Assembly: GCA_910574895.1 (NCBI GenBank)
Contig: CAJTDQ010000011.1
Span: 1-47,660 of the forward strand
From: Eubacteriaceae bacterium
GTDB lineage: Bacteria > Bacillota > Clostridia > Lachnospirales > Lachnospiraceae
DNA: 47,660 nucleotides
Reading direction: 5' to 3'
Shown here: one piece after another, positions 27,750-47,660 of the stretch
Position numbering within the stretch: position 1 is the first letter of the stretch
Layout of the letters: each line of letters starts with the position of its first letter
Notes under the pieces: generated by a model
Database searches by the model: none
What the model was told of the DNA's origin: nothing
What the model saw: only the letters and a program-made list of their open reading frames with translations
Translations under genes and position numbers: made by a program

Positions 27750-27811
27750 AAGCGAATTTTGTTTCCATCGGCAGATGGATAACCAAATTCAGTGCTTGGT
27801 AAGACGTGTCT

Positions 27812-28102: not shown

Positions 28103-28175
28103 TCGGTCTTTCCTCCCTTTTGGTCTTAAATTTAATGATAGTTACGTTGTTCCTAACAGAAAAATCTTCACGCAG

Positions 28176-29165: not shown

Positions 29166-29353
29166 TCAAATAAAATCACCTCCAGAAATGAATTTAGCCG
29201 AAGGATTTTCGCTAATGAAAACCTCTCGGCTATGTAATAAATTCAATATTAATTCTAATTTAAGTTGTCTGAAAACCGTAATTTATTGTTTGACAGCATT
29301 CTTTCTGTTTCAATCTACAACATTCTCTCAATTATAATGACTAAAGAAAATAT
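29166..29353. other. AT-rich intergenic region
   Basis: About 190 nt with no gene. An imperfect inverted repeat (AGCCGAAG with CTCTCGGCT, about 29193-29232) just upstream of the TOPRIM gene may be a hairpin in its leader. The remainder is AT-rich, like the adjacent cargo. Confidence 0.35.
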
Positions 29354-30076: not shown

Positions 30077-30149
30077 TTACTCAACCGCCTTTTCAAATGC
30101 CACCGTCTGCTCCTTCATAGAAATCTTCTTAATCAATTTTTACCGTTTA

Positions 30150-30665: not shown

Positions 30666-30779
30666 ATTCTCACCTGCAACTTCTTATTTATTGCTCTTAT
30701 TGTACATCCAGATTATGAATTTTTCAAGCCAGTCAAGCTATTGCATTTCTGCTCCATAGAAATATTATTCCTTTTAAGC

Positions 30780-30822
30780 TATATAAAAAGACGGCATCAA
30801 CACTCACGCCAATACCGCCTTT
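30780..30822 (-). terminator. Intrinsic terminator after the DUF6664-like gene
   Basis: On the minus strand GGCGGTAT (30812-30819) pairs with ATGCCGTC (30790-30797), with two G-U pairs, and is followed by TTTTTATA. It lies just downstream of the gene ending at 30838 and separates the helicase transcript from the AT-rich cargo. Confidence 0.65.
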
Positions 30823-30837
30823 TTCTCGGTCAGTCCG

Positions 30838-31167
30838 TTATAAAATCCCTGCCTTTTTCAGATACCCCACGCTGTCATAGCAGCCACGGAAGTAGACCGA
30901 CTGCATCTCCATGTCTGTAAGTTTGTTCCTAAGCTCCATCACTTTAATCAGTGCGGCACATTCTTCCTCGGTCAGTTCCGCCGCTGTTTCCGTGTCAAAC
31001 ACGCCTAAGACTTTCGGATGTTTCTCATATAAGCCCTCAATCTCGGCTCTTATGGCACGGTATTCCTCATTTTCTTTGGACAGTTTTGCGATGACAGAGC
31101 CGAGATATTCATTAAAAACATTGTCATGAACATCTACAAAAGTTTCAAATCTGAACGCATCAGACAT
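30838..31167 (-). CDS. DUF6664-like small conserved ICE protein (109 aa)
   Basis: MSDAFRFETFVDVHDNVFNEYLG..., a helical acidic protein (VIAKLSKENEEYRAIRAEIEGLYEKHP; TAAELTEEECAALIKVMELRN). I recognise it as the DUF6664 type that sits next to the giant helicase gene in Tn1549-like ICEs. Function unknown. It follows the end of the helicase gene by 79 nt and is followed by a good terminator. Confidence 0.72.
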   Translation of the reverse strand: MSDAFRFETFVDVHDNVFNEYLGSVIAKLSKENEEYRAIRAEIEGLYEKHPKVLGVFDTETAAELTEEECAALIKVMELRNKLTDMEMQSVYFRGCYDSVGYLKKAGIL

Positions 31168-31246
31168 TCTTCCTCACCTCCGATTTTTTCTAATCGTCCT
31201 TTATTATACTGCCCAGAAATACTCAATACAAATGTGCAAACTGGAT

Positions 31247-32083
31247 TTAACGCTCCCTGTCCGCACTTTTTTTCTCTGGCTGCTCATCGTTCTGCTCTGG
31301 CTCATCGTCAATAACAGTCTTGTCTTTTTCATTCAGATTCAGTTCGATATTGAGGGCGTTCAGCCGTTCCGTCTTTTCTTTCAGCTCATTTTCAAAGGCA
31401 AACGGCTTCTTCACTTCCTCTTTTGCGGTTTCAAGCTGTGCGGTGGTTTCCTCCTTTCTGGTCTTGGCGGCTTCCAGTCTTGCGGGAAGTTTGGCAATCT
31501 CATTCTCAATTCTCGTTAAATTGCCGAGGGCATCCGTTCCTAAATCCACTTTGTATTTCCTCATTCCGCATAAATTTAAGCAGTAGTGGGCATTGACCGT
31601 ATCATAGAAAACCTCCATCTGGAAGCCACGGTAGCTGCCGATTTGTATCGGCTGTGACAGCGGGTTTTCCTTGCAGATGGCAAGGAGCATTTCGCCTGCG
31701 TCCGCTTTTTCTTTGTAGGTCACGCCGTTTAAGGTCATCGGGCAGAATTTATCCTCGCCCTGCGGCATATGCTGGCTTGCAATCTTGGCATCATTTCCAT
31801 ATCCTACAATGCGTTCCCCATACTCCTTAATCTCCTGCGGGTAGTGCTTCAGTATCCTGTCCTCAAGGTCGTAATGCTCGGAAAGGTAGCTCTGCTTCAA
31901 GACTTTCAGCTTCGCCACCTGCATATCCAAATCCATTTTTTCCTTAAAGCGTTCATCGCCCGTGGCAAGCATTTTCACCTCCGCAAAAGAGAGGGCGACC
32001 TCGTCCACGTCCTCGGCAGAACGCACGGGGCTTTTGCTCGTCATTATCTGGGAGATGAATTTCTGCTTTCCCTCGACAAGCTG
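31247..32083 (-). pseudogene. Giant SNF2-type helicase, C-terminal exon after the intron
   Basis: 279 in-frame codons beginning QLVEGKQKFISQIMTSKSPVRSAEDVDEVALSFAE, the well-known end of the SNF2 helicase core of Tn1549-like giant proteins, and ending in a coiled-coil tail (EKTERLNALNIELNLNE). The codon before QLV is split off by the intron. Correct splicing joins it to the exon at 34439-34541 in the same frame. It has no own start and would be made only if the intron splices and the inner element is removed. Confidence 0.88.
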
Positions 32084-34438: not shown

Positions 34439-34541
34439 ATAGAGATACGCATCAAATGTCTGTTCTGTCACATAGCGGTAAACTTCCACTTCGGGAAACA
34501 TATTGCCCTGACGTTCCAGACGACCTTGACGCTGTTCCAAG
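34439..34541 (-). pseudogene. Helicase middle exon, 103 nt between intron and inner element
   Basis: Encodes LEQRQGRLERQGN followed by MFPEVEVYRYVTEQ and TFDAYLY, i.e. SNF2 helicase motif VI (QRxGR) and the following conserved block. It joins exactly to the N-terminal part at 45068 when the inner element is removed, and to 32083 when the intron is spliced. This short piece proves that both insertions hit the same gene. The last 24 codons of the inner recombinase are read from it in another frame. Confidence 0.9.
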
Positions 34542-36399
34542 CAAGTCGGTCATTTTTTACGGACAGTTCAATACATGCCATCCTTTTCTGTTCCCTGCTC
34601 CTGCGTTTGCTCTCGTTTGACTTCTCCCTCTGTATCCTCTTGGCACAAGCAGGGCAATACTTCGATATGCCAGAGCCGGGGACGTATTCAAAACCACATA
34701 CCGTACAATGTTTAGCGGGCAACGCCGTCCACCGCTTTGTGGGTGTGATATGTAATTCACCGACAAAGCCGATGAATTTATAGTAAATCTTGATTTCCTG
34801 TCTAATCGTTCCGTCCGCTGACTTCTCACGCTCCGAAACAAGTATCTTGTCTATCAGCGCATTTACAACCGTTGCGTCCAGTTCCTTTAAGCCTTGATAG
34901 TTGCGGATAAGGGAGAGGAAGTCACGGATTCCCTGCGATTTCTCGTAGCTTTCGTTGAGCGCTTCCGTTACTTCCCTTAACCGTGCTTCGATTTCAAGCT
35001 GTTCTTTCTGGTATTTCCCCGACATCATCTCGAAATTCCGCTCGGTGATACGCTCCATGACCTTATCCTCATAGAGAGAGGAAAACAGCCTGTCAAGCTC
35101 CGCAAGGCGTTTGTTCAGCTTCTTTTGTTCTTTCTCCATCGCCTTTGCCCTGCTCTGGTCTGTTTCCGTGAGCCGCTTCTCAATCGCCCTTACCGCCCGC
35201 TCGTCATTCACCGCCATATCCGCAAAGCGGTTGATGTCGGCAAGGACGGCGTTAAATAAATCTCTTGCTTCAATGGCGTGTGCGGTACACATGACGTTGC
35301 CGTACCTGCCATAATTATTACAGGTGTATTGTACGCAGTCGATAATGTCGGGGCGTTTCCTCCTGTTTGCGCTCATAGCCCGCAGAGCGTAGCCGCAGTC
35401 TGCACACTTGATAACGCCTGCAAAGATATTCTCAAATCCCCCTGCGTTCTGTTCCCGCCTGCGGCTCGTCATAAGCTGCTGTACGGTGTCAAATTCCTCC
35501 TGCGTGACTATCCCCTCATGGGTGTCGGGTATCACTTCCCATTCTTCGGGCAGCTTAGAAGGGCGTTTCTTGCTTTTCATGTTGGCGGCAATCCGCTTGT
35601 AGCCTGCAAGGTTTCCCGCATAGATAGGACTTCTTAAAATGCCCCTCACGCTGTTCTCGCTCCAAATATAGCGGTTTTCCTCGTTATCCTCAAAGTACCG
35701 TTCATAGCCTGCCGCCCCCTGCTCCGCCGCATAAGCGGCAGGGCGCAAGACGTGCTGTTTATTGATGTGTTTGCGGATTTTGGAGATTCCGTTTCCCGCA
35801 AGCGCAAGGTCGAATATCTCCCTTACAATGTGCGCCACCTTATCATCTATCAGCAGATGGTTATGGTCGGCGGGGTCTTTGATATACCCATAGGGCGCAT
35901 ACGTCCCCATGAATTTCCCCTGTTGAAACCTCGCTCGGTACGCCGATTTTATCTTAACTGATATGTCGGCGGCATACATTTCATTTAGGATATTGCGGAA
36001 CGGCGTGATGTCCATCACTGATTTATTGAGTGTGTCCACACCGTCATTGACCGCTATATACCGCACATTATTTTCGGGAAAAAAGACTTCCAGATATAAT
36101 CCGCAGTCAAGATAATTCCTCCCTAACCTTGATAAATCTTTCGTAATCACGCAGTTTATCAGCCCGTTTTCAATGTCCTTAATCATGTTCTGGAAGCTCG
36201 GTCTTTGGAAATTCGTACCAGAATAACCGTCGTCCACATACGTTTTTGCCAAGTGCCAGCCCTGCTTTTTCACATAATCCGTGAGGATGGATTTCTGCGT
36301 GGCAATGCTCGCACTCTCATTTTCCGTGCCATCGTCTTTCGATAGACGGCAGTAAATGCCGACTAAATAGATTTTCTTTTCTTCTTTGATTCCTGCCAT
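34468..36399 (-). CDS. Large serine recombinase of the inner element (TnpX-like)
   Basis: 643 aa. Catalytic domain at the N-terminus (VGIYCRLSKDDGTENES with the nucleophilic Ser in the YCRLS region; ITKDLSRLGRNYLD), Recombinase domain (about 170-290), zinc ribbon (CADCGYAL, then CNNYGRYGNVMC), coiled coil (about 380-480), and a C-terminal zinc-finger-like end (CTVCGFEYVPGSGISKYCPAC). GGAGG lies 9 nt before the ATG. The frame runs over the attachment site: the last 24 residues (AWNSVKVVWNV...) come from host helicase DNA, whereas on the excised circle it would end ...KNDRLV-stop. Confidence 0.92.
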   Translation of the reverse strand: MAGIKEEKKIYLVGIYCRLSKDDGTENESASIATQKSILTDYVKKQGWHLAKTYVDDGYSGTNFQRPSFQNMIKDIENGLINCVITKDLSRLGRNYLDCGLYLEVFFPENNVRYIAVNDGVDTLNKSVMDITPFRNILNEMYAADISVKIKSAYRARFQQGKFMGTYAPYGYIKDPADHNHLLIDDKVAHIVREIFDLALAGNGISKIRKHINKQHVLRPAAYAAEQGAAGYERYFEDNEENRYIWSENSVRGILRSPIYAGNLAGYKRIAANMKSKKRPSKLPEEWEVIPDTHEGIVTQEEFDTVQQLMTSRRREQNAGGFENIFAGVIKCADCGYALRAMSANRRKRPDIIDCVQYTCNNYGRYGNVMCTAHAIEARDLFNAVLADINRFADMAVNDERAVRAIEKRLTETDQSRAKAMEKEQKKLNKRLAELDRLFSSLYEDKVMERITERNFEMMSGKYQKEQLEIEARLREVTEALNESYEKSQGIRDFLSLIRNYQGLKELDATVVNALIDKILVSEREKSADGTIRQEIKIYYKFIGFVGELHITPTKRWTALPAKHCTVCGFEYVPGSGISKYCPACAKRIQREKSNESKRRSREQKRMACIELSVKNDRLAWNSVKVVWNVRAICFPKWKFTAM

Positions 36400-36452
36400 A
36401 CTGTAAAACCTCCGTATCTGCCCTAACGTTTTCGTGTTCCATTGCGTACATT

Positions 36453-36644
36453 CTAAGCGGATATCCCCTCATTGTCGAAGGTGTCGCCCTCGGCAATCTT
36501 CCTGCGTATATCCTCGGAAATAATCGGGATAAACGCCTCCGCAACGGTCTGTGTGCCAACATATTCACGGCTGACAATCATCTGCACTGGCTGTCTTGCC
36601 ACAATACGCTTTCTCTTTTTGTTCGCTTTCTTATCCTCGCCCAT
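36453..36644 (-). CDS. Small conserved transposon protein (63 aa)
   Basis: MGEDKKANKKRKRIVARQPV..., then VGTQTVAEAFIPIISEDIRRK. This basic small protein is commonly found just upstream of large serine recombinase genes in Clostridia, but I cannot name its family with confidence. It has AGGAAAG 9 nt before the ATG, which I prefer over the longer in-frame start at 36719. A recombination directionality or DNA-binding role is possible but unproven. Confidence 0.65.
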   Translation of the reverse strand: MGEDKKANKKRKRIVARQPVQMIVSREYVGTQTVAEAFIPIISEDIRRKIAEGDTFDNEGISA

Positions 36645-36715
36645 ACTCAAATCTTCCTTTCCAGACAGGGCAGGGGAGCGTCTGAAAACGTCCCCACCCT
36701 GCCAATCAGACACAA

Positions 36716-36946
36716 TCAATCCCCGCTGTTTATCTTTTTCTGCAATGCTTTAAAGAGCGCAGCCGCTTCATCAGCGGTCAACGTGATTCCCTTTCCGCAC
36801 TTCTCACGGCTGGGGGAAAAGCTGCGGATGTCATACTTTGGCTCTTTCCCATTCCATGAAATCAAGTTGATTTCCTTTGTATAGCCGCTGTCGCTCGTAG
36901 ACAATACGGCGATTTCCTTTACAATCTCATATTGAATAGCTTTCAT
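36716..36946 (-). CDS. YdbC/PC4-like single-stranded-DNA-binding protein
   Basis: 76 aa. The pattern YEIVKEIAVLSTSDSGYTKEINLISWNGKEPKYDIRSFSP followed by KCGKGITLTADEAAALFKAL matches the YdbC-type PC4 fold, which binds ssDNA as a dimer. It may protect DNA or assist transcription in the mobile element. The gene is in line with parB upstream and the 63-aa gene downstream. Confidence 0.85.
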   Translation of the reverse strand: MKAIQYEIVKEIAVLSTSDSGYTKEINLISWNGKEPKYDIRSFSPSREKCGKGITLTADEAAALFKALQKKINSGD

Positions 36947-37012
36947 TTCCTGTCTTGCCTTTCTGCTTTTTTATCTGTCCAAAGTTTCTATTTACTGCCC
37001 GAAAAGAGAAGA

Positions 37013-37867
37013 TTAGCGGCTGTCCCTGCCCCGTTTCCTCTGCAATTCACGCTCCAACAGTTTGATGATAGTGTCCTCCATCTGCTTGGGCGTTGTCCCT
37101 TTCGGGAAGTATTTCTTTAACCTCTCCATGCCAATTTTCACGGTTTCTTTCTGGTTTCCCTTTTCCTCCGTCATAATCGCAAAGATGGTGTCCATATCAA
37201 GCCGCCCGCTCTGGCTCAAGGTTTTCATCCGCTGTGCCTGTGAGAGTGAAGGCGTTGCTTCCTCGCTTTCCATTGTGGCGAATAGGTTTTCCTGCTCGCC
37301 TTTCTTCAGAAAGGACAGCTCCACCGCAGGCGTGAGGGCGATTTTCCCCTCGTCCACCATCTGTAAAATCGGCGGTATCAGTTCCGTTAATCGGATAAAT
37401 CTCTGCACGGTCATCCTGCCAACGCCGAATCCCTGCGCCACTTTATCGTCCGTCCGCAACTTCGTCCCAACTTGTGACGAGGTTAAATCCGTGCGGAAGC
37501 CCTGCCGCTTCATGGCTTCGGATTTCATCTTGTAGGCAAACGCCCGCTCCGATGGCAGGATATTTTCACGCTGTAAGTTGCTGTCCACAAGGGTGATGAT
37601 GGCTCGGTCACGGTCTAAGGGCAGGACAAAAGCGGGGACTGTGTTTATCCCTGCAAGCTCGGAAGCACGGACACGCCGCTGTCCCGCAATGATTTCGTAG
37701 CCGTTCCCGTCCTCTTTCGGGCGTGTGATTATCGGCGTTACAATGCCAAATTCCTTAATGCTTTCCGCTAACTCTGACAGCATTTCATCCTCCACCACAT
37801 GAAACGGATTGTCGGGAAACGGGTATAAATCTGCGGTCTTTAATACCTTAAAATCCTGTTTCTTCAT
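37013..37867 (-). CDS. parB: ParB/RepB/Spo0J partition protein
   Basis: 284 aa. The N-terminal ParB domain (LYPFPDNPFHVVEDEMLSELAESI, then EIIAGQRRVRASELAGI, the CTP-binding/arginine patch) is followed by the HTH region (VAQGFGVGRMTVQRFIRLTEL) and a short C-terminal dimerisation part. No ParA partner is present nearby, so it could be a ParB-like regulator rather than a full partition system. It lies 9 nt downstream of the MobV relaxase gene. Confidence 0.9.
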   Translation of the reverse strand: MKKQDFKVLKTADLYPFPDNPFHVVEDEMLSELAESIKEFGIVTPIITRPKEDGNGYEIIAGQRRVRASELAGINTVPAFVLPLDRDRAIITLVDSNLQRENILPSERAFAYKMKSEAMKRQGFRTDLTSSQVGTKLRTDDKVAQGFGVGRMTVQRFIRLTELIPPILQMVDEGKIALTPAVELSFLKKGEQENLFATMESEEATPSLSQAQRMKTLSQSGRLDMDTIFAIMTEEKGNQKETVKIGMERLKKYFPKGTTPKQMEDTIIKLLERELQRKRGRDSR

Positions 37868-37875
37868 TCACATTC

Positions 37876-38841
37876 CTACCTTTCTTTCGCTCTATTTCTA
37901 CTAGATTTTTGCAATTCCTCTAATACCTCTGGCGGGATTTTGGAGAGCAGCCGCCCCATCTGCTCGTTGGTTCTCTGCAACTCAAATATCCTCTGGTTGG
38001 CTTTCTGTACCTTTCGTTCCTGCTCGTACTTCTCATCACGCATACGCCCCGCATAGTCGGATTCCTGCCCGATTCTCTCTTTTAGGCTATCGATATACGC
38101 CTGCTGTTTGCCGATTTCCTTAGAGAATTTCTCCACGTCTGGAAGCCATGCGGAGAGCAGTTCTAACGCCTTATCCCTTTTCTTGCCAGCGTTAAAAGCG
38201 TTGATGTCGGAGAGGGCAGACACGATTTCCGCATACTGTTTATCTAGCCTGCCGCCTAACTTATAGAGCCATGTGGGGATGTGCTTGCGCTTCGTTTCCA
38301 TTGAGGACTGACCCCTTTCTAATTCGCTCCACCGTGCGGACATCCGTTCATGGTAGGCGGTCTGCCACTCGGAAAGGCTCTTTTGGTTGCCTAAAATTGA
38401 CTTCGCTGACAGCTTGTTGTCGGGCGTAAGCGGCACAAAGCATAGGTGCATATGGGGCGTTTTCTCGTCCATATGGACGACTGCGGAAAGGATATTCTGC
38501 TTTCCCACACGCTCCGAAATGAAGTCAAGAGCCGTCTGGAAATACGCTTTTTGTTCTTCGGGCGGTAAGCTGTTCATAAATTCGGGTGAAGCGGTGATGA
38601 GCGTTTCTACCATCATCACGCTGTCTTTTCTTACTTTACAGCCCGCTTCTTTTACCATTTGGTTTATCTCTTTCTTGTAAGTGTAGCGGGGCGGCTTCAC
38701 AAGATGGTAGTTATCTTTGGAGCGTCCCACGTCAATGTCTGGGTTGCTTTTATAGGCTTCTTTCTTCCGTTCGTTGTGGCGTTCACAAGCCGCAACGCCG
38801 CCTGCCTTGCGTTTCTGGAAACGCAGGATTGCATAGGGCAT
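37876..38841 (-). CDS. mobV: MobV-family relaxase (Pre/Mob)
   Basis: 321 aa. It starts MPYAILRFQKRKAGGVAACERHNER, the Pre/Mob pattern, has the metal and catalytic centre VVHMDEKTPHMHLCFVPL (HxDExxPHxH), and a C-terminal coiled coil. Such relaxases nick pMV158-type oriT sites, and a matching site lies about 200 nt upstream (39038-39080). The gene is shorter than pMV158 MobM (494 aa) at the C-terminus. It permits mobilization by the surrounding ICE or another helper. Confidence 0.9.
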   Translation of the reverse strand: MPYAILRFQKRKAGGVAACERHNERKKEAYKSNPDIDVGRSKDNYHLVKPPRYTYKKEINQMVKEAGCKVRKDSVMMVETLITASPEFMNSLPPEEQKAYFQTALDFISERVGKQNILSAVVHMDEKTPHMHLCFVPLTPDNKLSAKSILGNQKSLSEWQTAYHERMSARWSELERGQSSMETKRKHIPTWLYKLGGRLDKQYAEIVSALSDINAFNAGKKRDKALELLSAWLPDVEKFSKEIGKQQAYIDSLKERIGQESDYAGRMRDEKYEQERKVQKANQRIFELQRTNEQMGRLLSKIPPEVLEELQKSSRNRAKER

Positions 38842-38880
38842 AATTCATCTTCCTTTCTTCGGCGGGTAATCTCCCAAAAG

Positions 38881-39388
38881 GTGACGGTCGTGACGATGGT
38901 GACGGTGTTTTTGGGATACCCCCTGCCGCAAGGCATAGCCGTCACTATCACGCCAACATTCTTCCATCCGAAGCCGCAAGGCGCAGGATGGGGCAGGGCG
39001 TATGCCCTGCTTTAAGGGAGTCCAGAGGGAACGTCTGGCACACGACTTTGCGGAGCAAAGTGTAGTGTGTTACACCCTGTAAACGCAGTCGGAAAAATCG
39101 GAGGATTTTTCTGACCGCAGGGGTGGCTTTACGAGCCGAAAAGGGCGAGCAAAGCCCACGCCTGCACTTTGCGTTTACGGGGTGTTCTCCCGTAGGGCAG
39201 AACCGCCGATCTTACAAATATTTGCTATGACAGCGGCAGCAACAGGGGGTATCCCAAAAACACCGTCACGACCGTCACTAACCGTCACGCATAAGCCAGA
39301 GCCGCCGATTTCGCTTAGTTTTTAGGTGACAGTGGCGGCGGCAGGGGGTATCCCAGAAACACCGTCACCATCGTCACGACCGTCACCG
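38881..39388. repeat. Three copies of a 35-50 bp repeat flanking the oriT region, candidate origin
   Basis: Copy A (38881-38930) is inverted relative to copies B (39243-39278) and C (39339-39386). The common core is CAGGGGGTATCCCAAAAAC followed by 9-bp steps of CACCGTCAC or its complement (GTGACGGT-type). B and C together form a longer direct repeat starting CCGCCGAT. Copy C overlaps the C-terminal codons of the RepA-like gene. The arrangement resembles iterons of a replication origin. Confidence 0.65.
39038..39080 (+). promoter_or_regulatory. oriT: pMV158-like oriT (nick TAGTGTG/TTA)
   Basis: GCACACG, the hairpin ACTTTG-CGGAG-CAAAGT (39045-39061) and TAGTGTG/TTA (39063-39072) reproduce the layout of the pMV158 oriT recognised by MobV relaxases. 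The predicted nick is between 39069 and 39070 on the + strand. In this direction the mobV gene would enter the recipient last. A further inverted repeat pairs ACACCCTGTAAACGCA (39072-39087) with TGCGTTTACGGGGTGT (about 39169-39184). Confidence 0.85.
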
Positions 39389-40362
39389 TCCGTATCCTCC
39401 TGCCTTGCAAGGAAAATCAGCCTGTGGCTGTTCTTGCGGCAGAAGTCATAGCGGATATGGTTTTCAAGGAGAAAGTCAAGGCGGTACTCGTTCATCCACT
39501 TTGTCAAAACATTCGCCGCTGTCCCTGTTTCCCCTAAAGCGTCCAGTAATTCCGTTGCCGTTCCAGTCCATTCCTCCCTGCACTGCATGAAATCCACCAG
39601 CCGAAAAAGAATATCTGGTATCGCTTCTTTGGCAAGCTGTTCCTGCTCTTTCCTCTCCACCAGTTCCCAACTGCAATCATGGAAGCGGAGCGTGAACTCC
39701 TGATAGGGCGTGTCCCTGCCCGTCACATACAGCTTTGCGGCATTGGACGCACGGTTTTCCTGTTCCAGTACAAAAGTTGCGTCCGCACTCCCCGTCAATC
39801 CCGTCGTGCCAGACACTTTGTTGAACACGTCGCTGTCGTTCTGCTTTCGGATGTGGTGTACGACAATGACCGCCAATGAGTGCCTGTCGGCAAAGTCTTT
39901 GATAAGGGAGATGTCCCCATAATCGCTTGCATAGGCGTTGTCTTTGGATGCGGTGCGGACTTTCTGCAAGGTGTCAATCACAATGAGCCTGCTGTCGGGA
40001 TATTCTTTTAAATAATCCTCCAACTGCACGATAAGACCGTCTGACAGCTTGTCGCTTGCCACCGCAAAATGAAGCCGCCCGCTCGCTTCGTCCGTCAAGC
40101 GGAACAGCCTGTCCTGGATGCGGCAGAACGTGTCCTCAAGGCAGAGGTAAAGCACATCGCCCTCCTGCGTGGGCATATCCCACAAGGGGATTCCCTGCGA
40201 CACGCAAAGGCAGAGTTTTAACATGAGCCAGCTCTTGCCGATTTTCTGTGCGCCGCAGAACAGGGTTAAGCCCGTGGGTATCAGACCGCCCACCACAAAG
40301 GACGGTTTTTCAAGCGGCTCATAGAGGAGCGTGTCGGCGTTGACCGTCTGAAGCTTCTGCAT
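39322..40362 (-). CDS. RepA-like AAA ATPase / replicative helicase
   Basis: 346 aa. The RecA-fold core (AAA_25 type) has Walker A LTLFCGAQKIGKSWLML, Walker B RLIVIDTLQKVR, and the VIVVHHIRKQ motif, as in RSF1010-type RepA helicases. The C-terminal part is a winged-helix-like region (MQCREEWTGTATELLDAL). The last residues DTDGDGRDDGDG are encoded by the origin repeat. It suggests that the excised element can replicate as a circle; no separate primase or initiator is seen. Confidence 0.85.
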   Translation of the reverse strand: MQKLQTVNADTLLYEPLEKPSFVVGGLIPTGLTLFCGAQKIGKSWLMLKLCLCVSQGIPLWDMPTQEGDVLYLCLEDTFCRIQDRLFRLTDEASGRLHFAVASDKLSDGLIVQLEDYLKEYPDSRLIVIDTLQKVRTASKDNAYASDYGDISLIKDFADRHSLAVIVVHHIRKQNDSDVFNKVSGTTGLTGSADATFVLEQENRASNAAKLYVTGRDTPYQEFTLRFHDCSWELVERKEQEQLAKEAIPDILFRLVDFMQCREEWTGTATELLDALGETGTAANVLTKWMNEYRLDFLLENHIRYDFCRKNSHRLIFLARQEDTDGDGRDDGDGVSGIPPAAATVT

Positions 40363-40507
40363 GGGATTCCTCCTTTCGGGCGGTGTCTTTGGTTTTGTTG
40401 CACATAGATGTGACCTCCTTAAATAGATTTACTCCCACGGAAAAAGTGAGAGTATGTAATGCCGCCAGTCCCACGCAAAACGGATTTCTTTTTTCGGATG
40501 GTGGCGG

Positions 40508-40981
40508 TCACGGTTGGAGATACTTCCTCATTTCTGCCTTGACTTTCTCCCTTGCAACTGAAACGGACTTCTGGACAGCGGAAGCGGTGCAATGCTCCAT
40601 CTCGCCAATCTGGTAGAAATTAAAATCATACTCGTAATAGAGCAGGAAACGCCGCCTTTGTATCTCTGGCAGTTGGGCAACTGCTTTGTAAAACAATTCA
40701 TTCCGTTCTTTTTCAATCATTCTTTCATCAAGGCTCTTTGGCACTCTTAACGCACGTCTGTAAAGGGTTTCATCCCACACCTCGTTAAACTCCCTGTGCC
40801 GCTGGTTCCATTGCTGAAGGTTTCTGTTCCTCCTTTCCATCTGCCGAAATTCAATGAATAATTGTTCTGACACTTCCAGTTCGTGGTATTCCCCCTGCCC
40901 GTCCTTAAAACTGATAAAATACCTTTTACCGCTTTCCGTGGATGCCTCCCGAAGCGTGTATGTCTTTGCCCCGTATGCCAT
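40508..40981 (-). CDS. Sigma-70-like regulator A of the inner element (157 aa)
   Basis: MAYGAKTYTLREASTESG... with a C-terminal sigma region-4-like HTH (LPEIQRRRFLLYYEYDFNFYQIGEMEHCTASAVQKSVSVARE). The N-terminus resembles the region before the HTH in ICE sigma-like proteins. AGGAGGAAAGGAA before ATG 40981 decides the start. It is the nearest regulator upstream of the RepA-like gene and could control replication or transfer genes. Confidence 0.75.
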   Translation of the reverse strand: MAYGAKTYTLREASTESGKRYFISFKDGQGEYHELEVSEQLFIEFRQMERRNRNLQQWNQRHREFNEVWDETLYRRALRVPKSLDERMIEKERNELFYKAVAQLPEIQRRRFLLYYEYDFNFYQIGEMEHCTASAVQKSVSVAREKVKAEMRKYLQP

Positions 40982-41061
40982 TTCCTTTCCTCCTGCTAAA
41001 AAGTAGGAGAGCGTTTTTCTCTCCCCACCCAATAGCCCATAGGAAAGCCATGATTTCCCCT

Positions 41062-41490
41062 CTAACGCTTAAATGGCTTCAATCTGCTCCGCAGCCTTTC
41101 CATCCGTCTGTAAACAGACTTTGTTGACAGCTTTACGGATGCGGCAATCTCTTTTGTGGAATATCCCTGCATTTTCAGCAGGACGATTTGTAACGTGCGT
41201 TTATCTACCGTGATTAAGGCAAGGTACAGAGTTTCGTTCTCAATCTCGTCCAGTAAATCAGAAACAGACTTTACCTCCGCCTGCTTCTCCTTATCTGCCA
41301 TGCCCTCAAGGTATTCGCCGAAGTCGCTCGCCCATCGGTAAAACCGCCTGTTGGAATTAAAATCTGCCCTGTCGTCTGTGCGGATTTGCTCAATGGTCGC
41401 TTCATCAACGCCGCACTCACGCAGAACCTTTTCCTCAGCTTCTTTCCAGATACGCCATTTCCTGTCCTCCCGTCCGTGGTTGTATGCCAT
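41062..41490 (-). CDS. Sigma-like/HTH regulator B, paralogue of the one at 5980-6408
   Basis: 142 aa, the same length as the outer ICE protein, sharing the start MAYN(H)GREDRKWRIWKEAEE, FNSNRRFYRWASD-like middle and a C-terminal HTH (LKMQGYSTKEIAASVKLSTKSVYRRMERLRSRL). GGAGG lies 10 nt before ATG 41490. The two elements therefore carry homologous regulatory modules and could cross-regulate each other. Preceded by a terminator hairpin (41530-41575). Confidence 0.78.
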   Translation of the reverse strand: MAYNHGREDRKWRIWKEAEEKVLRECGVDEATIEQIRTDDRADFNSNRRFYRWASDFGEYLEGMADKEKQAEVKSVSDLLDEIENETLYLALITVDKRTLQIVLLKMQGYSTKEIAASVKLSTKSVYRRMERLRSRLKPFKR

Positions 41491-41529
41491 CTTTATTTCC
41501 TCCAATCAGAATTGATTGAGAGGGCAGGT

Positions 41530-41575
41530 AAAAGCCCCCTCATTTTCCCAAAGGAAAAAACAAGGGGGCTGAACG
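41530..41575 (-). terminator. Hairpin between sigma-like genes B and C
   Basis: On the minus strand AGCCCCCT pairs with AGGGGGCT and TTTTCC with GGAAAA across the loop, followed by TTTTACC. It lies between the gene ending at 41578 and the gene starting at 41490 and probably ends or attenuates the upstream transcript. Confidence 0.7.
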
Positions 41576-41577
41576 CC

Positions 41578-42093
41578 TTAAATTTTGTTTTCGATTATCT
41601 TCCTCAGCTTCGCAAGGATTTTGGCTTTGCGTTTATTGACAACGCTCTGTGTCACGCCCAACCGCAACCCGACTTCCCTCTCGGAAAGTTCTTCAAAGAA
41701 GATTGCTTGTATCAACGTCTGTTCACTGTCCGACAATAAAGGCAGGGCAGCTTTCAGCCTGTCCACCATCGCCGCATGGACAACGGTTTCCGCAACGTCC
41801 ACCGCTTCATCAACAATGAAATCAAGAATATTCCCCTCGCTGTCTGTAAATCCCTCCAATGACAGCAGGCTGTAGTTAATATCCAGTTTTTTCAGATAAC
41901 GCCACCGTTCTTTATCTTTGTAGAACTCTGCGTACTGTTCCCGCACTACCTCAAGCAGACAACCTTGAATGGGAATAAACAGCTTGTCCATGTAACTCTG
42001 GTCGGCTTGCCTGCGGCGGCAGAAGTCCGTATAGGATAATTCCACATAGACATTGTTTTCTTTGATATATACTTTTCTTGGTGCATATTTCAC
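41578..42093 (-). CDS. Sigma-70-family-like regulator C (171 aa)
   Basis: The product starts (GTG)KYAPRKVYIKENNVYVELSY. It has a sigma-like middle (RYLKKLDINYSLLSLEGF) and a region-4 HTH at the C-terminus (LLSDSEQTLIQAIFFEELSEREVGLRLGVTQSVVNKRKAKIL). I choose the GTG at 42093 because GGAGG lies 9 nt upstream; a TTG reading would start inside the ribosome site. It is the first regulator after a structured leader (42211-42453). Confidence 0.78.
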   Translation of the reverse strand: MKYAPRKVYIKENNVYVELSYTDFCRRRQADQSYMDKLFIPIQGCLLEVVREQYAEFYKDKERWRYLKKLDINYSLLSLEGFTDSEGNILDFIVDEAVDVAETVVHAAMVDRLKAALPLLSDSEQTLIQAIFFEELSEREVGLRLGVTQSVVNKRKAKILAKLRKIIENKI

Positions 42094-42179
42094 CGTATTT
42101 TCCTCCAATCTGAATTTTTAAAATGCTAAAATCCAGATGAAGAGGGCGGCGAACGACAGCCAACAGCAGGAACAGCCCT

Positions 42180-42350
42180 GCGGCACATTCCGATAAAAAA
42201 CGACAAAAGAAAAACCGCAAAGGTTCTGTGACCTCTACGGTTATAGGAGATATATGTTCTATTAAGTGGAGATTCTACTTCTGGTTTCATGGTGAGAAGT
42301 AGCGTTGCATGGGCAGGGATTTTTTTAACTGGCTTCCTGCCAATCCCCGA
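42180..42350 (-). promoter_or_regulatory. Structured leader of sigma-like gene C, similar to 6511-6660
   Basis: A short frame IGRKPVKKIPAHATLL... (about 42345 down) parallels MGGQPVKKI at 6655 in the outer ICE. It runs into a terminator AACCG-AAAGGT / ACCT-ACGGTT (about 42214-42242) followed by TTTTCTTTTGTCG, the same tail as in the outer copy. The two copies are alike but not identical, which suggests conserved function. Confidence 0.5.
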
Positions 42351-42415
42351 TATGCTATGTATAAGTTATTTCTGCATTGCATGAGCAGATGGATAACTGC
42401 CCGAAAAAAAGACAT

Positions 42416-42453
42416 AAAAAAATCCCTCCAAACTCAAAAACAGGTCTGGAGAG
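42416..42453 (-). terminator. Terminator hairpin upstream of the leader
   Basis: On the minus strand CTCCAGAC pairs with GTTTGGAG and is followed by GGGATTTTTTT. It is the counterpart of the hairpin at 6701-6735 and probably insulates the regulator genes from the cargo upstream. Confidence 0.65.
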
Positions 42454-42485
42454 TGTCTGTTAAGTCTTTTCGGGCATAGCAATAC

Positions 42486-42592
42486 CGCCCACCACACACC
42501 GTTTTTTTATATGGTGGGCGTTTGCCTTAAAATCCTATGAAATAAAATAGAGCCAACGAACTGTGATTTTATTTCACAAGTTCATCGGCTCT
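42486..42592 (-). terminator. Two terminators after the KTR gene
   Basis: On the minus strand a long stem AGAGCCGATGAACT / AGTTCGTTGGCTCT (42549-42592) directly after the KTR stop is followed by ATTTTATTTC. A second stem pairs CGCCCACCA with TGGTGGGCG (42486-42520). Two strong terminators in series insulate the cargo from the regulators. Confidence 0.72.
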
Positions 42593-42596
42593 GCGT

Positions 42597-42767
42597 CTAT
42601 GCGTCTGGCTCTGTGATGACTGTTATTTGCAAACTTTTGACTTCAATCAAAGTTTCCTGCTTGCATTTCGGGCAATAGAGGGGGTAGTTTTTCAAAACCG
42701 TATCTTCTCTAATTCTGTCACGGGTTTTGTTACCGCAAACAGGACAGAGTATCCACTTTTCTTTCAT
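42597..42767 (-). CDS. Cysteine-rich KTR-domain protein (56 aa)
   Basis: The start MKEKWILCPVCGNKTRDRIRE with two CxxC pairs (CPVC, CPKC) is the KTR-type zinc-ribbon protein known from Firmicute mobile elements. It likely binds zinc; its job is unknown. AGGAGTGTAT precedes the ATG by 4 to 9 nt. It lies between the WYL regulator and the double terminator. Confidence 0.82.
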   Translation of the reverse strand: MKEKWILCPVCGNKTRDRIREDTVLKNYPLYCPKCKQETLIEVKSLQITVITEPDA

Positions 42768-42833
42768 ATACACTCCTATAATTGCTATTTATAATCTTTT
42801 AAATTACGGCAAACATCTGTATTTCCGACATTG

Positions 42834-43739
42834 TTAGTACATGGCAGATATTCTTTTAGCTTTTTCCTTTAGAATATTTCTCGCTTCAACAGGTTCAATA
42901 ATTTCAACATATTCCCCAAAAGAAAGCAGATATAGGAAAGTCCAATCACTAAGCTGGTATCTAAAAGTCACTTCCAATGTTCCATCGTCTAATTTTTTAA
43001 TGTATTTCTCTTGAAATTCATCATAGACTTTATACGCTATCTTTTCCGAAAAATGTAATACGAATATCGGCGTATTGTATTCTTCCTTGTAGGCAGGGGT
43101 AATGGAAAAATCCTTTGGTAATTCACGGTCAAATAATTGGTCTGTTATTTGAAGCTCCCTTATGCGAGACATCTTAAAAGTGCGAATATCATTTTTGCGC
43201 TTTGAATAGGCAACAAGATACCATGCATGAGATTTGAAAACCAATTTCAACGGTTCGACAATCTGATTGGTGATTGTCAATTCTGCATTAAAATAAGTGA
43301 ACGTAATCACATACTTATTGATTATTGCACGTTCTAAAACCGTAATATTGTTTCGTTCCTTTTCAGGACTGCCCCAATAGGAAAAATCAATCTCTAGCCA
43401 TTCGGACTGCAAATTGTGACTAAACAATCCAGCAATCTTGTTTAATGATTTATCAGCATCGGGATAATTTGATGACTTTAGAATCTGCAACGCCTGTATA
43501 ATATTCTTTTGTTCTTCCTGCGTAAAATAAGATTTGTCCAGTGAAAAGCCTTGTAATAATGACAATCCTCCGCCATATCCCTTTTGTGATGTAATCGGTA
43601 TTCCCGCAATCGATAGTATATTGATGTCCCTATATATCGTGCGGGTGGAAACGCAAAGTTCCTCCGCCAGTTGCTTCGCAGTTATATTCTCATGCCTTAA
43701 CAAGAGAAACACAATTTGAATAAGTCTGTCTATCTGCAT
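42834..43739 (-). CDS. WYL-domain transcription regulator
   Basis: 301 aa. An N-terminal winged HTH (RLIQIVFLLLRHENITAKQLAEELCVSTRTIYRDINIL) is followed by the WYL ligand-sensing domain (FKSHAWYLVAYSKRKNDIRTFKMSRI), the usual arrangement of YafY/DeoR-like regulators. The start at 43739 lies 4 nt after the DUF3795 stop (TGATAATATG), so it is probably coupled; a longer start at 43772 overlaps that gene. It may control the two genes before it. Confidence 0.85.
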   Translation of the reverse strand: MQIDRLIQIVFLLLRHENITAKQLAEELCVSTRTIYRDINILSIAGIPITSQKGYGGGLSLLQGFSLDKSYFTQEEQKNIIQALQILKSSNYPDADKSLNKIAGLFSHNLQSEWLEIDFSYWGSPEKERNNITVLERAIINKYVITFTYFNAELTITNQIVEPLKLVFKSHAWYLVAYSKRKNDIRTFKMSRIRELQITDQLFDRELPKDFSITPAYKEEYNTPIFVLHFSEKIAYKVYDEFQEKYIKKLDDGTLEVTFRYQLSDWTFLYLLSFGEYVEIIEPVEARNILKEKAKRISAMY

Positions 43740-43743
43740 ATTA

Positions 43744-44088
43744 TCACTCTGCCTTTTTGTGTTTAATGGCAAGCTGTTTTAAATGATTCAAATTTTCTGA
43801 ATTATCACCTAAATTTTCTTCCAGTATAGAACATGGAAATTTGCCACACTCAGCACAACTTCCATAGGGTTTCTTAACGCCACATAGTCTTATTTCACAA
43901 TCACCGCACATCTTTTGTGACACCATATCAGAATGGCATCCCAAACAATACATATCCTCTTTTGAGAATTTTGTAACATCAGTTGAATATTCGTTTGCCA
44001 ATTTGATTTGTTCATCTGTATTTTTGCTGATAGTAGCCAAATAAACAGGACATTCATTACAATCCAATCCACAATATGAGAAATCCAT
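43744..44088 (-). CDS. DUF3795-family cysteine-rich protein
   Basis: 114 aa, starting MDFSYCGLDCNECPVYLAT, with a second cluster CLGCHSDMVS and C-terminal CGDCEIRLCGVKKPYGSCAE. The cysteine pattern fits DUF3795, presumed zinc- or metal-binding. The start shares one base with the stop of the preceding gene (TAATG), so it is tightly coupled. Function unknown. Confidence 0.82.
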   Translation of the reverse strand: MDFSYCGLDCNECPVYLATISKNTDEQIKLANEYSTDVTKFSKEDMYCLGCHSDMVSQKMCGDCEIRLCGVKKPYGSCAECGKFPCSILEENLGDNSENLNHLKQLAIKHKKAE

Positions 44089-44435
44089 TAAAACACTCCC
44101 TCTCCTAAATATTTGTCATGCGGAACTATTAAACATTTTTCAATAGACTTCCAATAGCTGTCGTAAAGATTTTTTTGTGCTGCTCCGTAGTTCTCTTTTG
44201 TATCAAATTCCCAGTAAAGCATATACTTAACACTTTTTACGATACGGTTAATTTTAAGAGGTGGAAGCCCCTCCTTAATTTGCTCCATGTCTATGCGATA
44301 CCCTCTTTTGGCGAACCGAAGCAGAAGCAATCCCTCCTGTTTTTCTAAGAGGCTTTTGGCTTCAAGCATCAGAGCTTCAAATTCTTCTACCTTTTGCGGC
44401 TTGACTTGATAAATACATATTTCAGTAAACGGCAT
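44088..44435 (-). CDS. ABM-like dimeric alpha/beta-barrel protein (115 aa)
   Basis: MPFTEICIYQVKPQKVEEFEALMLEAKSLL, then VKSVKYMLYWEFDTKENYGAAQKN, the pattern of antibiotic-biosynthesis-monooxygenase-like ferredoxin folds. These can be small oxygenases or heme-binding proteins; the substrate is unknown. AGGAGG lies 8 nt before ATG 44435. It is the first gene of a three-gene operon with DUF3795 and a WYL regulator. Confidence 0.75.
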   Translation of the reverse strand: MPFTEICIYQVKPQKVEEFEALMLEAKSLLEKQEGLLLLRFAKRGYRIDMEQIKEGLPPLKINRIVKSVKYMLYWEFDTKENYGAAQKNLYDSYWKSIEKCLIVPHDKYLGEGVF

Positions 44436-44590
44436 ATTCAATTCCTCCTTCATTTTAGTTATAGCATTAGGAATGTGACAACAAGCATGTCGCATTCCTC
44501 AATTTATTTACAGTGAAATGATGATATAGTTCTTTATATTCTACCATGCTGAAACTCCTTCTGGCAAATATCAACTTTAATCAGCCCTAT
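44436..44590. promoter_or_regulatory. Promoter region of the ABM/DUF3795/WYL operon
   Basis: An AT-rich stretch of about 155 nt with no gene. The operon promoter and a possible WYL operator should be here. I see no strong dyad that I would call an operator. Confidence 0.4.
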
Positions 44591-44626
44591 GAAAAGAAAA
44601 GTGACAGAACTTTTACATTCTGCCAC
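44591..44626 (-). terminator. Intrinsic terminator of tnpV
   Basis: On the minus strand GTGGCAGAA pairs with TTCTGTCAC (44618-44626 and 44601-44609) over a 8-nt loop, followed by TTTTCTTTTC. It starts just after the tnpV stop at 44636. Confidence 0.8.
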
Positions 44627-44635
44627 CTTGCCTAT

Positions 44636-45010
44636 CTATGCGAAAATAATTTCCTCATTCACAATCTCCCTCGCACACGCCCTTATGTTGTTGAGCCGTC
44701 CTGTCCATTCTAAGGCGTTTTCTTCCTTTAGCCGTTCCGTTATGCCCTGTGCCTGTTTCATGCCCTCTATGAGCCTTTCAAAGCGTTCCTGCGCCTGCCT
44801 GTCGATGTCGGCAAGGTAAGTGTTCAGCCTGCCGCTTGTAAGAAGATTGGTGTATGTAACCCTGCGGTACTGCTTCAGATAATCTAGATGCCGCTGTCCC
44901 CATGTGCCTATCGGCTGTTCTTCTTCGGCGGGTACGGTTAAGCACGGGATTAAGTAATCTCCTTGCCGCTCGTATTTTCCGCCCAGTTCCTCAAAAATCG
45001 TCTTTGCCAT
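44636..45010 (-). CDS. tnpV: TnpV family transposon protein
   Basis: 124 aa. MAKTIFEELGGKYERQGDYL, then PIGTWGQRHLDYLKQYRR and LTSGRLNTYLADIDRQAQERFERL are signature stretches of TnpV, carried by Tn4451-like mobilizable transposons. Its exact role is unknown. GGAGG lies 7 nt before the ATG, and the truncated helicase frame ends inside this ribosome site. It lies at the element end opposite to the recombinase. Confidence 0.88.
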   Translation of the reverse strand: MAKTIFEELGGKYERQGDYLIPCLTVPAEEEQPIGTWGQRHLDYLKQYRRVTYTNLLTSGRLNTYLADIDRQAQERFERLIEGMKQAQGITERLKEENALEWTGRLNNIRACAREIVNEEIIFA

Positions 45011-45016
45011 TGTCTG

Positions 45017-47660
45017 TTACCTCCACATTTTTTTTATTTTGAATGTCCGCAAAATCCGTCCTACACATGACGGCTTCCACGGGCAGTCGAGGTTATGAAT
45101 GGCAATCAGCCTGTCCTGCACGTTTGTACCTGCGCCCATCTTCTGGGTAGAGCCGAACAATATACGCACTTCGCCGCTCCTTACCTTTGCGAACAGCTCC
45201 TTTTTCTGTGCGTCGGTATTCGCTTCATGGATGAAACGCACTTGCTCCGCAGGGATTCCACGCCGTATCAACTTTTCCCTCATGTCATCGTAGACATTAA
45301 ACATGCCGTCATTTTTCGGTGTGCTGAGGTCGCAAAACAAGAGCTGTGCAGCCTTTGTGTCGGCGTGTCCCTCCCAGATGCGGTACATATTTTCCACGCA
45401 GGCGTTGACTTTGCTGTTCGGGTCGTCTGGCAGCATCGGGTCAATCAATCTCTGGTCTAGGGCAAGCTGCCGCCCGTCGTTTGTCACTTTGAGCATATTA
45501 TCTGTTTGTGGTTTTACCAGTCTTGCACGGATTTTCTCTGCCCGCTTCGCAAGCCCCGCCACCATTTCGCTCTGAATTTCACTCGGTTTGGTCTTGATGT
45601 TGTGGTAATTGACCTTTGGCACGGGGAGCTTTAGCATATCGGCAGTCTGGATGTCCGCAACCTCACGGAACATCTGCATCAGTTCTGGCAGGTTGTAGAA
45701 CTTCGCAAACCTCGTCTTGGCTCGGTAATTCGTGCCTTCGGGGGCGAGTTCCAGAGCCGTGACTGTTTCGCCGAACGTGGAAGCCCAACTGTCAAAATGC
45801 TGCAACCCGTTCCTTGCGAGGGTGTCATACTGCAAGTACCGCTGCACGGAATACATCTCGACCATTGAGTTACTTATAGGCGTTCCCGTTGCGAAAACCA
45901 CGCCACGGTTGCCCGTGATTTCGTCCAGATAACGGCATTTCATAAACAAATCGCTTGACTTCTGGGCTTCGGTCTGGGCGATGCCGCCGACGTTCCGCAT
46001 CTTTGTGTAAAGGTAAAGGTTCTTGTAAAAATGGCTCTCATCTATAAAGAGCCTGTCTATGCCCAGTTCCTCAAAGTTTATCACGCTGTCTTTCCGTTTG
46101 GTGTCGTTGAGTTTATCGAGCTTCGCCTTGATTGCTTTCCTCGTTTTCATGAGCTGCTTGACCGTGAACTGCTCCCCGTGGGATGCCTGCACGTCGTCTA
46201 TCCCCATCTCTATATCGTCAAGCTGCCGCATGAGCTGTTCCCTCTGGCGTTCCTCGCTGATGGGGATTTTCTCGAACTGGCTATGCCCGATAATCACCGC
46301 ATCATACGCCCCCGTCGCAATCCTGCCGCAGAACTTTTTGCGGTTTCCCGTTTCAAAATCCCGCTTGGTAGTCACAAGGATATTGGCAGATGGATAGAGC
46401 CTTAAATACTCCGACGCCCACTGCCCGACAAGGTGATTCGGCACAACAAACATGGATTTCTGGCATAAGCCGAGCCGCTTGCTTTCCTGTGCGGCGGCTA
46501 CCATTTCAAAGGTTTTTCCCGCACCTACCTTGTGGGCAAGGAGCGTGTTGCCGCCGTATAGGATATGGGCGATGGCGTTCACTTGATGCGGTCTTAGCTG
46601 GATTTCTGGGCTGATGCCTCCAAATGTGATATGGCTTCCGTCGTATTCACGGGGACGGATGGAATTAAATGTGTCATTATAATAGCGTACAAGCCTGTTC
46701 CTCCGCTCTGGGTCTTTCCAAATCCAGTCCTGAAACGCCTGCTTTATCACCTCCTGCTTTGCCTGCGCCGCCGTGGTTTCCTTATGGTTCAGCACCGCTT
46801 TTTTATTGTTGTGTTCATCATAAACATAGTCAAAGATGCGGGTGTCACGGAGATTTAAAGTGTCCTCCATAATGCGGTATGCGCTCGCCCGCTTCGTGCC
46901 GTAAGTGCTGTCCGCCTTGACATTCCCAATGTCGGAACTCTTATTCTCGATGAACCAGTCGCCGTTATATGCCGTGTAGCGCACTTGCAGCCTGCCCGCC
47001 GCATAGCTTGACGGCGTTAAAAGCTCCATCATAAACTGCTGTATATCCTCCTGCGGTATCCATGTCGTGCCGAGACGGACGGAGATTTCGCTTGCAGGCA
47101 AATCCTTTGGGATGACTTTTTCCAGAGCCGCCACGTTGACTGCAAGCTCTGGGTCTGACTTTGCCGCTATCCCTGCAACTTTCAGTTTCTCCCGCACATT
47201 CCCCGATAAATACTCGTCTGCGGTCACATACCTTGCAGGCTCACAAGACGGCACTTTGTAGATAACGCCCTGCAATTCCTTAATGATTTCTTCCTCTGAC
47301 CTGCAAGTGAGCCGTGCCATATAGGGCAAATCGACACGGGCTTTCTCCCCGATGGAGAGGGCGAGGGCTTCGCTGGCGGTTTCCACAAAAGTCACTTCTC
47401 GGTGGGGCTTTATCGTCCGTTTCGTGAACATATCCGCCTTGCGTTTGAATTTCCCCTCGTCGTCAAGCACTTCAAGGGAACAGAGTAAGAAATAACTTTC
47501 ATCTGCCCCAAAAGCGAGGTAGTTCCCCCTGCTGTTGATTAAGCCGTACCTTTTGGTAAAGGCATCATATAATCGGTTTAGGTTTTCCTGCTCGGTCTGT
47601 ATCATTTCCTCTGGGCAGTCGTCGGTCTGGTACTGGATGAGCTTCCTCACGCAGTCACGG
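45017..47660 (-). pseudogene. Giant SNF2-type helicase, N-terminal part cut by the inner element (runs off window)
   Basis: A DEAD/SNF2 helicase core: Walker A TLLAHKVGAGKTFEMVAA, Walker B-like RLFIDESHFYKNLY (DESH), ATGTPISNSMVEMYS (motif III), and a C-terminal helicase domain to FGSTQKMGAGTNVQDR. It ends at LDCPWKPS, where the inner element begins at 45067; the last 16 codons (CVGRILRTFKIKKMWR) are read into the element. The frame is still open at the window edge, and homologous giant proteins have an N6-DNA methylase-type region upstream. Residues upstream of helicase (PHREVTFVETASEALA) fit the family. It lacks the final motif VI (QRxGR), which lies at 34439-34541. Confidence 0.88.

What the first reader, a model, noticed from the sequence alone, without database searches (positions are those of the whole stretch)
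34542..45067. Inner element sits in the ICE helicase gene; removal restores the frame to the base
The flanks share only CA. Joining them at that dinucleotide yields the in-frame sequence CPWKPS-C-LEQRQGR, i.e. helicase motif VI. This defines a 10.5-kb element with a two-base core typical of large serine recombinases. The insertion is in a conserved catalytic motif, so it inactivates the helicase as long as it is integrated, and excision can switch the gene back on.
Basis: seen in the sequence. Interest (0 to 1): 0.8.

Follow-up and report, generated by a model that had tools for sequence, protein, structure and literature searches.

The report
Mobile element nested in ICE helicase
A 10.5-kb element with its own recombinase gene sits inside the helicase gene of a larger element that carries predicted vancomycin-resistance genes, and a copy of the larger element in another bacterium, identical over the 34 kb compared, lacks it, so it likely came or went cleanly; arrangements of this kind are already described.

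Summary
Window 34542-45067 is a 10.5-kb element inside the SNF2-type helicase gene of an ICE with a predicted vanG cluster. The best one (genome G426, another genus of the same family) matches the window without mismatch over 2,595 bp on one side and 31,461 bp on the other, and holds the two-base core (TG on the minus strand) once. The element has the gene set of a mobilizable element: large serine recombinase, MobV relaxase, TnpV, ParB-like protein. Of 79 element edges read (80 relatives plus the window), 41 lie at the same helicase motif VI. That excision switches the gene on is not shown. The idea is published (PMC5357655); a streptococcal relative showed no excision while its ICE still transferred (PMC7168690). 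Verdict: new member of a known kind (IME in ICE snf2). The main extra is that the core dinucleotide goes with the target codon: GA with Asp, TG with Cys.

The parts
34542..45067 (-). Inner element, predicted integrative and mobilizable element (IME), core dinucleotide included at both ends
   Evidence: Shared element ends; natural element-free allele G426:C2
45066..45067 (-). Core dinucleotide TG, copy on the helicase N-part side
   Evidence: present once in the element-free allele
34542..34543 (-). Core dinucleotide TG, copy on the recombinase side
34468..36399 (-). Large serine recombinase; residues 1-619 inside the element, last 24 residues encoded by helicase DNA in another frame
   Evidence: Pfam Resolvase, Recombinase, Zn_ribbon_recom, DUF4368 all above cut-off; tail varies with target in the relatives read
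37013..37867 (-). ParB-like protein
   Evidence: Pfam ParB_N 69.5 bits; TIGR00180 91.8 over cut-off 58.45
37876..38841 (-). MobV-family relaxase
   Evidence: NF041497 176.6 bits, cut-off 100; PF01076 202 bits
39322..40362 (-). AAA_25 ATPase (RepA-like by recall)
   Evidence: PF13481 91.3 bits
40508..42108 (-). Three sigma-factor-like or helix-turn-helix ORFs (40508-41032, 41062-41505, 41578-42108)
   Evidence: Two of the three scanned: sigma70-ECF 32.7 and 41.1 bits, both under cut-off 42.9; 41062-41505 named by eye only
42834..44495 (-). Cargo: WYL regulator, DUF3795 protein, unnamed 135-aa protein
   Evidence: WYL and DUF3795 above cut-off, third protein without a Pfam family
44636..45010 (-). 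TnpV
   Evidence: PF14198 156.4 bits
45044..45054 (.). 11-bp end repeat of the S. suis snf2 IMEs, exact
   Evidence: repeat quoted in PMC9815147
34555..34565 (.). Inverted copy of the same repeat, 10 of 11 bases
45017..47660 (-). Helicase gene, N-terminal part up to motif VI (gene start lies beyond the contig), running 15 codons past the core codon into the element
   Evidence: SNF2-rel_dom and ResIII
34439..34543 (-). Helicase gene, middle piece from motif VI to the intron
32084..34438 (-). Group II intron with reverse transcriptase/maturase (ORF 32165-34063)
   Evidence: Rfam RF02012 and RF00029; TIGR04416 356 bits over cut-off 300; bounds; 2355/2355 nt identity with L154
31247..32083 (-). 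Helicase gene, C-terminal piece
   Evidence: reference residues 2310-2587
3082..47660 (-). Host ICE (part in window): serine recombinase ORF 3059-4852 (its last codons lie past the inferred edge), vanT/vanXY/vanG/vanS/vanR 6866-12772, VirB4 17772-20105, VirD4 22149-23942, relaxase-like 25795-27270
   Evidence: NCBIfam VanG 549.9 over 495, VanT-G C-term 548.9 over 460, VanR 390.1 over 350, CD1110 VirB4 and CD1115 VirD4 over cut-off; VanXY, VanS, the VanT membrane part and relaxase hits under cut-off; end of identity with G426

Best explanation
The 10.5-kb stretch carries the genes of a mobilizable element of the IME_SNF2 / Tn4451 kind and lies at a two-base core inside motif VI of an ICE helicase gene, most likely put there by its own large serine recombinase, which would be able to take it out again. 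Shown: exact bounds, a two-base core at both ends, a natural element-free copy of the same ICE identical on both sides, and the same site used by many relatives. Inferred: the recombinase pairs the core in the circular element with the same two bases in a loosely palindromic target (G at -8, C at -5, G at +5, C at +8), and motif VI coding DNA fits that pattern, so ICEs carry a ready landing site. While inserted, the element cuts the helicase reading frame within motif VI; the N-terminal part would run a few codons into the element. The element likely travels with its ICE or uses the ICE's transfer machinery through its MobV relaxase. Whether excision is regulated, or needed for ICE transfer, is unknown. 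A group II intron about 100 bp downstream breaks the gene independently and would have to splice.
For: Pieces in order on an intact relative. G426 allele: 2,595 bp and 31,461 bp identical, flanks overlapping by the two core bases. A second, uninterrupted copy of the helicase's later part in the window's own genome (C12, 1178-aa frame). Both edges seen in 46 elements, window included: 42 GA/GA, 2 TG/TG (window and L015), 1 TG/GA, 1 AA/GA. 41 of 79 edges at motif VI. Target pattern: +5G with +8C in 22 of 36 distinct other targets against a background rate of 0.044, and in 39 of 40 helicase loci. Gene content. 11-bp end repeat of the published S. suis elements. One recombinase, identical over the 605 residues compared, in 28 loci from many genera.
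Against: No excision or transfer was observed; genomes cannot show it. The window's core is TG, not the GA of most relatives. In S. suis IME_SNF2 excision was not detected (PMC7168690). Because the G426 pair is identical, entry and exit cannot be told apart. Target-pattern loci are not independent draws. Two of 46 elements have unlike cores at their ends.
Confidence: 0.93

Rival explanations
1. Regulated switch (an addition to the best explanation): the element leaves when conjugation is induced, the helicase is made, and the element returns afterwards, as proposed for IMEs in streptococcal ICEs.
For: Core and flanks allow traceless exit, since an element-free identical ICE exists. Hypothesis stated in PMC5357655 section 25. 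A Tn1806-like ICE nested in snf2 was in part excised and transferred on its own during re-conjugation (PMC12942858, passages; other recombinases). Tn6103, which carries nested elements, circularised but was not seen to transfer, and its authors name the insertions as a possible cause (PMC3158075, passages).
Against: IME_SNF2 excision not detected and ICE transfer went on with the IME aboard (PMC7168690). The composite ICE of PMC12942858 also transferred whole, at low frequency. The intron remains in the gene in the element-free allele.
Confidence: 0.15
2. Passive passenger (an addition to the best explanation): the element rarely leaves, rides with the ICE, and the helicase is dispensable or only modulates transfer.
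For: PMC7168690 (no excision seen, transfer with IME). PMC9815147 says that only eight of 155 S. suis genomes carried an intact snf2 gene.
Against: Recombinase and relaxase frames are open here; an identical ICE without the element exists, so movement was likely recent.
Confidence: 0.4
3. Assembly artefact: two ICE copies in one genome were mis-joined around a separate element.
For: The genome holds a second ICE whose contig C12 begins at the helicase position where C11 ends.
Against: C12 is only 92.0-95.5% identical to the window pieces, so the copies are told apart; 40 of 78 edges read in other assemblies show the same junction.
Confidence: 0.02

Closest known systems
IME_SNF2 of streptococcal Tn5252-family ICEs (PMC5357655; PMC7168690; PMC9815147)
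   Same: Serine recombinase, PF01076 relaxase, TnpV, ParB, insertion in the ICE snf2 helicase gene, 11-bp end repeat, recombination site inside or next to the integrase gene
Tn4451/Tn4453 and Tn6104 (PMC5704250; PMC3158075)
   Same: TnpX-type recombinase, two-base core, TnpV, mobilization gene; Tn6104 is nested in the conjugative transposon Tn6103 and excises
   Different: No catP/catD found here; sequence identity to TnpX not measured
Tn5397 / TndX (PMC4430133)
   Same: Large serine recombinase, GA at the target, a group II intron in the element
   Different: TndX records are about 36% identical over 83% of the query; Tn5397 is conjugative, this element has no transfer machinery found; core here is TG
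Tn1806-like ICE in snf2 (PMC12942858)
   Same: Serine-integrase element nested in the same kind of gene, shown by conjugation
   Different: Three integrases, 4-bp repeats, a whole ICE

Membership tests
IME_SNF2 / Tn4451-type IME | Large serine recombinase at one end with the recombination site at or in its 3' end | tested here: met
   Residue 619 of 643 is the edge
IME_SNF2 / Tn4451-type IME | Two-base identical core at both ends | tested here: met
   TG/TG; one copy in the element-free allele
IME_SNF2 / Tn4451-type IME | Own relaxase (PF01076/MobV) | tested here: met
IME_SNF2 / Tn4451-type IME | TnpV | tested here: met
IME_SNF2 / Tn4451-type IME | No conjugation machinery of its own | tested here: met
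   No VirB4/VirD4 family among the 10 of 11 main inner ORFs that I scanned in Pfam or NCBIfam; ORF 41062-41505 not scanned
IME_SNF2 | Insertion in the ICE snf2 helicase gene | tested here: met
IME_SNF2 | 11-bp inverted repeat at the ends | tested here: met
   Exact at 45044-45054, 10 of 11 at 34555-34565
IME_SNF2 / Tn4451-type IME | Excision and mobilization | not testable with these tools
   Needs the living strain
IME_SNF2 / Tn4451-type IME | Sequence kinship to TnpX or to a named streptococcal IME_SNF2 integrase | not tested
   No such named sequence was compared; kinship rests on architecture, end repeat and site
Tn5397 / TndX-type conjugative transposon | Central GA at the target | tested here: not met
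   Core is TG in the window; GA in 36 of 41 helicase edges, window included
Tn5397 / TndX-type conjugative transposon | Own conjugation genes | tested here: not met
   None found among the 10 of 11 inner ORFs scanned

The most novel reading that the evidence does not exclude
One codon of the ICE helicase is the battleground between ICE and IME. The IME's two-base core is the first two bases of that codon, and both change together: GA-core elements sit in Asp codons (36 of 36 helicase edges) and TG-core elements in Cys codons (5 of 5), with at least five core changes on the recombinase tree (four to or from TG, one AA). ICE helicases whose codon starts with neither GA nor TG (7 of 87 distinct uninterrupted alleles) were not found occupied (0 of 41). 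Codon change would be an escape from the element and core change the element's answer.
Probability: 0.2. Interest if true: 0.6.

Novelty: new member of a known kind. Interest (0 to 1): 0.38.

Why it matters
The window and the G426 copy form a natural with/without pair of one ICE, identical over the 34 kb compared, so the effect of the nested element on its gene can be studied with no other difference seen in that stretch. The family also shows how an element finds a landing site in a gene that many ICEs of this group carry, by recognising DNA that encodes a catalytic motif, and how a two-base core can go with a codon. The kind of arrangement itself is already in print for streptococci and, for nested Tn4451-like elements, for C. 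difficile.

Tried and rejected
Mimicry of motif VI by the element's end: the tail that the element adds to the helicase N-part begins VGR and tblastn aligns it to motif VI, but it lacks the preceding QR residues, so I read it as attachment-site similarity, not a replacement motif. The longer shared tail (KKNVEV...) is present in 21 of 23 loci read; the window and L015 differ.

Codon escape: the difference between 0 of 41 occupied and 7 of 87 empty is not significant (Fisher p = 0.096), nor is TG 5 of 41 against 4 of 87 (p = 0.14); the loci are related and not independent.

Strict helicase exclusivity was rejected: 38 of 79 edges fail the strict motif test; of these L052 is a helicase by tblastn, and L071 has helicase on its other side only. 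Edges not read: L024 (no edge found) and L073 (contig ends), 2 of 81.

The protein search with the helicase gave at least 7,980 relatives, but the 120 listed were all 99-100% identical to the query over the searched stretch, so it was not used for the codon survey.
Full report
What was checked. The window carries, on the minus strand, an ICE with VirB4, VirD4 and a vanG-type cluster: the VanG ligase, the VanT catalytic part and VanR are over NCBI cut-offs; VanXY, VanS and the VanT membrane part are under theirs. I used natural uninterrupted relatives instead.

The bounds. Against an uninterrupted 2587-aa relative (L121, from genome G047), the helicase pieces align in order at 47659-45047, 34549-34439 and 32083-31250. 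The ends shared by relatives place the core at 45067-45066 and at 34543-34542. This is the finding's interval to the base.

The natural with/without pair. The search for the intron's protein led to genome G426, same family and another genus. Its contig C2 matches the window without mismatch over 2,595 bp on the N side and over 31,461 bp on the other side, down to window 3082, with the flanks overlapping by exactly the two core bases. The element is absent there and the intron present (2355 of 2355 nt). Identity ends near window 3065-3082, in the last codons of the ICE's own recombinase ORF, and window 1-3064 has no match in the stretch of G426:C2 that I fetched (15001-110000), so I infer that the ICE lies at different places in the two genomes. 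The window's own genome has a second ICE on contig C12; its helicase, held from reference residue 1410 on, is 92.0-95.5% identical to the window's pieces and uninterrupted by either element. Whether the element entered one lineage or left the other cannot be told.

The element. Its gene set is that of Tn4451-like IMEs: recombinase with Resolvase, Recombinase, zinc-ribbon and DUF4368 domains, MobV relaxase, TnpV, a ParB-like protein, an AAA ATPase and sigma-like ORFs, plus a small cargo. The 11-bp repeat printed for the S. suis IMEs is exact at one end and 10 of 11 at the other. The recombinase frame runs through the edge: 619 residues are in the element and 24 come from helicase DNA. In the relatives read (38 of 80) the tail past the edge changes with the target or, in one branch, ends at the edge. 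PMC5357655 section 14 describes one streptococcal IME with its site inside the integrase gene and one with its site next to it.

Site choice. From 80 relatives (the best 80 of 203) plus the window, 79 edges could be read. 41 continue as helicase motif VI, with core GA in 36 and TG in 5; 38 do not, with core GA in 36, TG in 1 and AA in 1. One recombinase sequence, identical over the 605 residues compared, occurs in 28 loci: 6 in motif VI, 21 elsewhere, 1 unread. So the enzyme is loosely specific. The other targets share G at +5 and C at +8 (both in 22 of 36 distinct flanks; background 0.044 over 12,318 positions) and, mirrored, C at -5 (18 of 23) and G at -8 (20 of 23). Motif VI DNA has +5G and +8C in 39 of 40 helicase loci. 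I infer that motif VI is a hotspot because its coding DNA fits this dyad.

Core and codon. In the natural element-free alleles the core is the first two bases of one codon. Among 87 distinct uninterrupted segments (102 matches), that codon starts with GA in 76, TG in 4 and something else in 7. TG-core elements in helicases sit in a Cys codon and GA-core ones in an Asp codon (5 of 5 and 36 of 36). The core changes at least five times on a quick recombinase tree in which many forks are weakly supported; six rows are TG (window, L012, L015, L017, L019, L059) in four places, and one is AA (L062). This is the novel case; the contrast with other codons is not significant.

The second interruption. 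A group II intron lies at 32084-34438. Its closest relatives L154, L155, L156, L157, L016, L042 and L074 lie at the same helicase spot (reference 2307-2311); the first four lack the IME at motif VI in the stretch read. Three more distant ones, L158-L160, showed no helicase match. So an intron family and an IME family use places about 100 bp apart in the same gene. Of 42 helicase-sited loci (41 plus L052), 37 run through the intron spot and 5 stop there (window, L016, L030, L042, L074). Four of the five carry the intron; L030 runs instead into other sequence that I did not identify.

Function. With the element in place the frame of the N-part ends 15 codons past the core codon, and the rest has no obvious start; loss of the full helicase is inferred. 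The switch idea is published as a hypothesis (PMC5357655 section 25, read in full). Against it stands PMC7168690 (no excision of IME_SNF2 seen, ICE transfer with the IME; passages). PMC12942858 cuts both ways: a composite ICE with an element in snf2 transferred at low frequency, and some nested elements were excised and transferred alone (passages). PMC3158075 reports excision of the related Tn6104 from Tn6103 with a two-base repeat but no transfer of Tn6103, for which its authors name the insertions as a possible cause (passages).

Novelty. IMEs in ICE helicase genes, including a gene of Tn1549-related ICEs distantly related to SNF2 (PMC7168690), and a group II intron in snf2 (PMC9815147, passages) are in print. 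None of six paper searches listed a paper whose shown title or abstract start concerns core dinucleotides that match target codons in this family; I read passages or sections of seven papers only, and the library holds openly licensed papers only.

Noticed in passing
window 3059-3082: The ICE's own serine recombinase ORF also runs to the ICE edge: identity with G426 stops near 3065-3082, a few codons before its stop.
   Followed up: partly
window 5016-5729: PemK/MazF-like ORF 5016-5417 (named by eye) with an Rfam pemK RNA match at 5628-5729 inside the ICE, a possible toxin-antitoxin locus.
   Followed up: no
window 226-1140: Part of another serine recombinase (PF07508 at 169-492) on the plus strand outside the inferred ICE edge.
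   Followed up: no
L012, L017: Elements with about 2.4 kb extra between the recombinase gene and the element edge, both with a TG core.
   Followed up: no
L010, L011, L012, L018: Four related elements in one genome (Sporofaciens musculi), three of them at helicase motif VI.
   Followed up: partly
L053, L084: The two ends of the element carry different core dinucleotides (TG/GA and AA/GA), as mismatched-core recombination, point mutation or, for L053, mixed elements could leave.
   Followed up: no
L065, L080, L084, L086: Four elements sit in nearly the same other target, which by eye looks like a ParB-like gene.
   Followed up: no
L061-L088: A recombinase identical over 605 residues in 28 loci from Streptococcus, Enterococcus, Blautia, Anaerostipes and other genera: likely recent spread.
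   Followed up: partly
records MN270279.1, LR962153.1, LR962508.1: A Streptococcus suis phage-labelled record and two Enterococcus faecalis plasmids match 47-50% of window 31100-47660 at 85-87% identity, with tet(O) under the match.
   Followed up: no
G000 contigs C11 and C12: C11 ends and C12 begins at the same helicase position, so the upstream half of the gene is probably shared by two ICE copies and collapsed in the assembly.
   Followed up: partly
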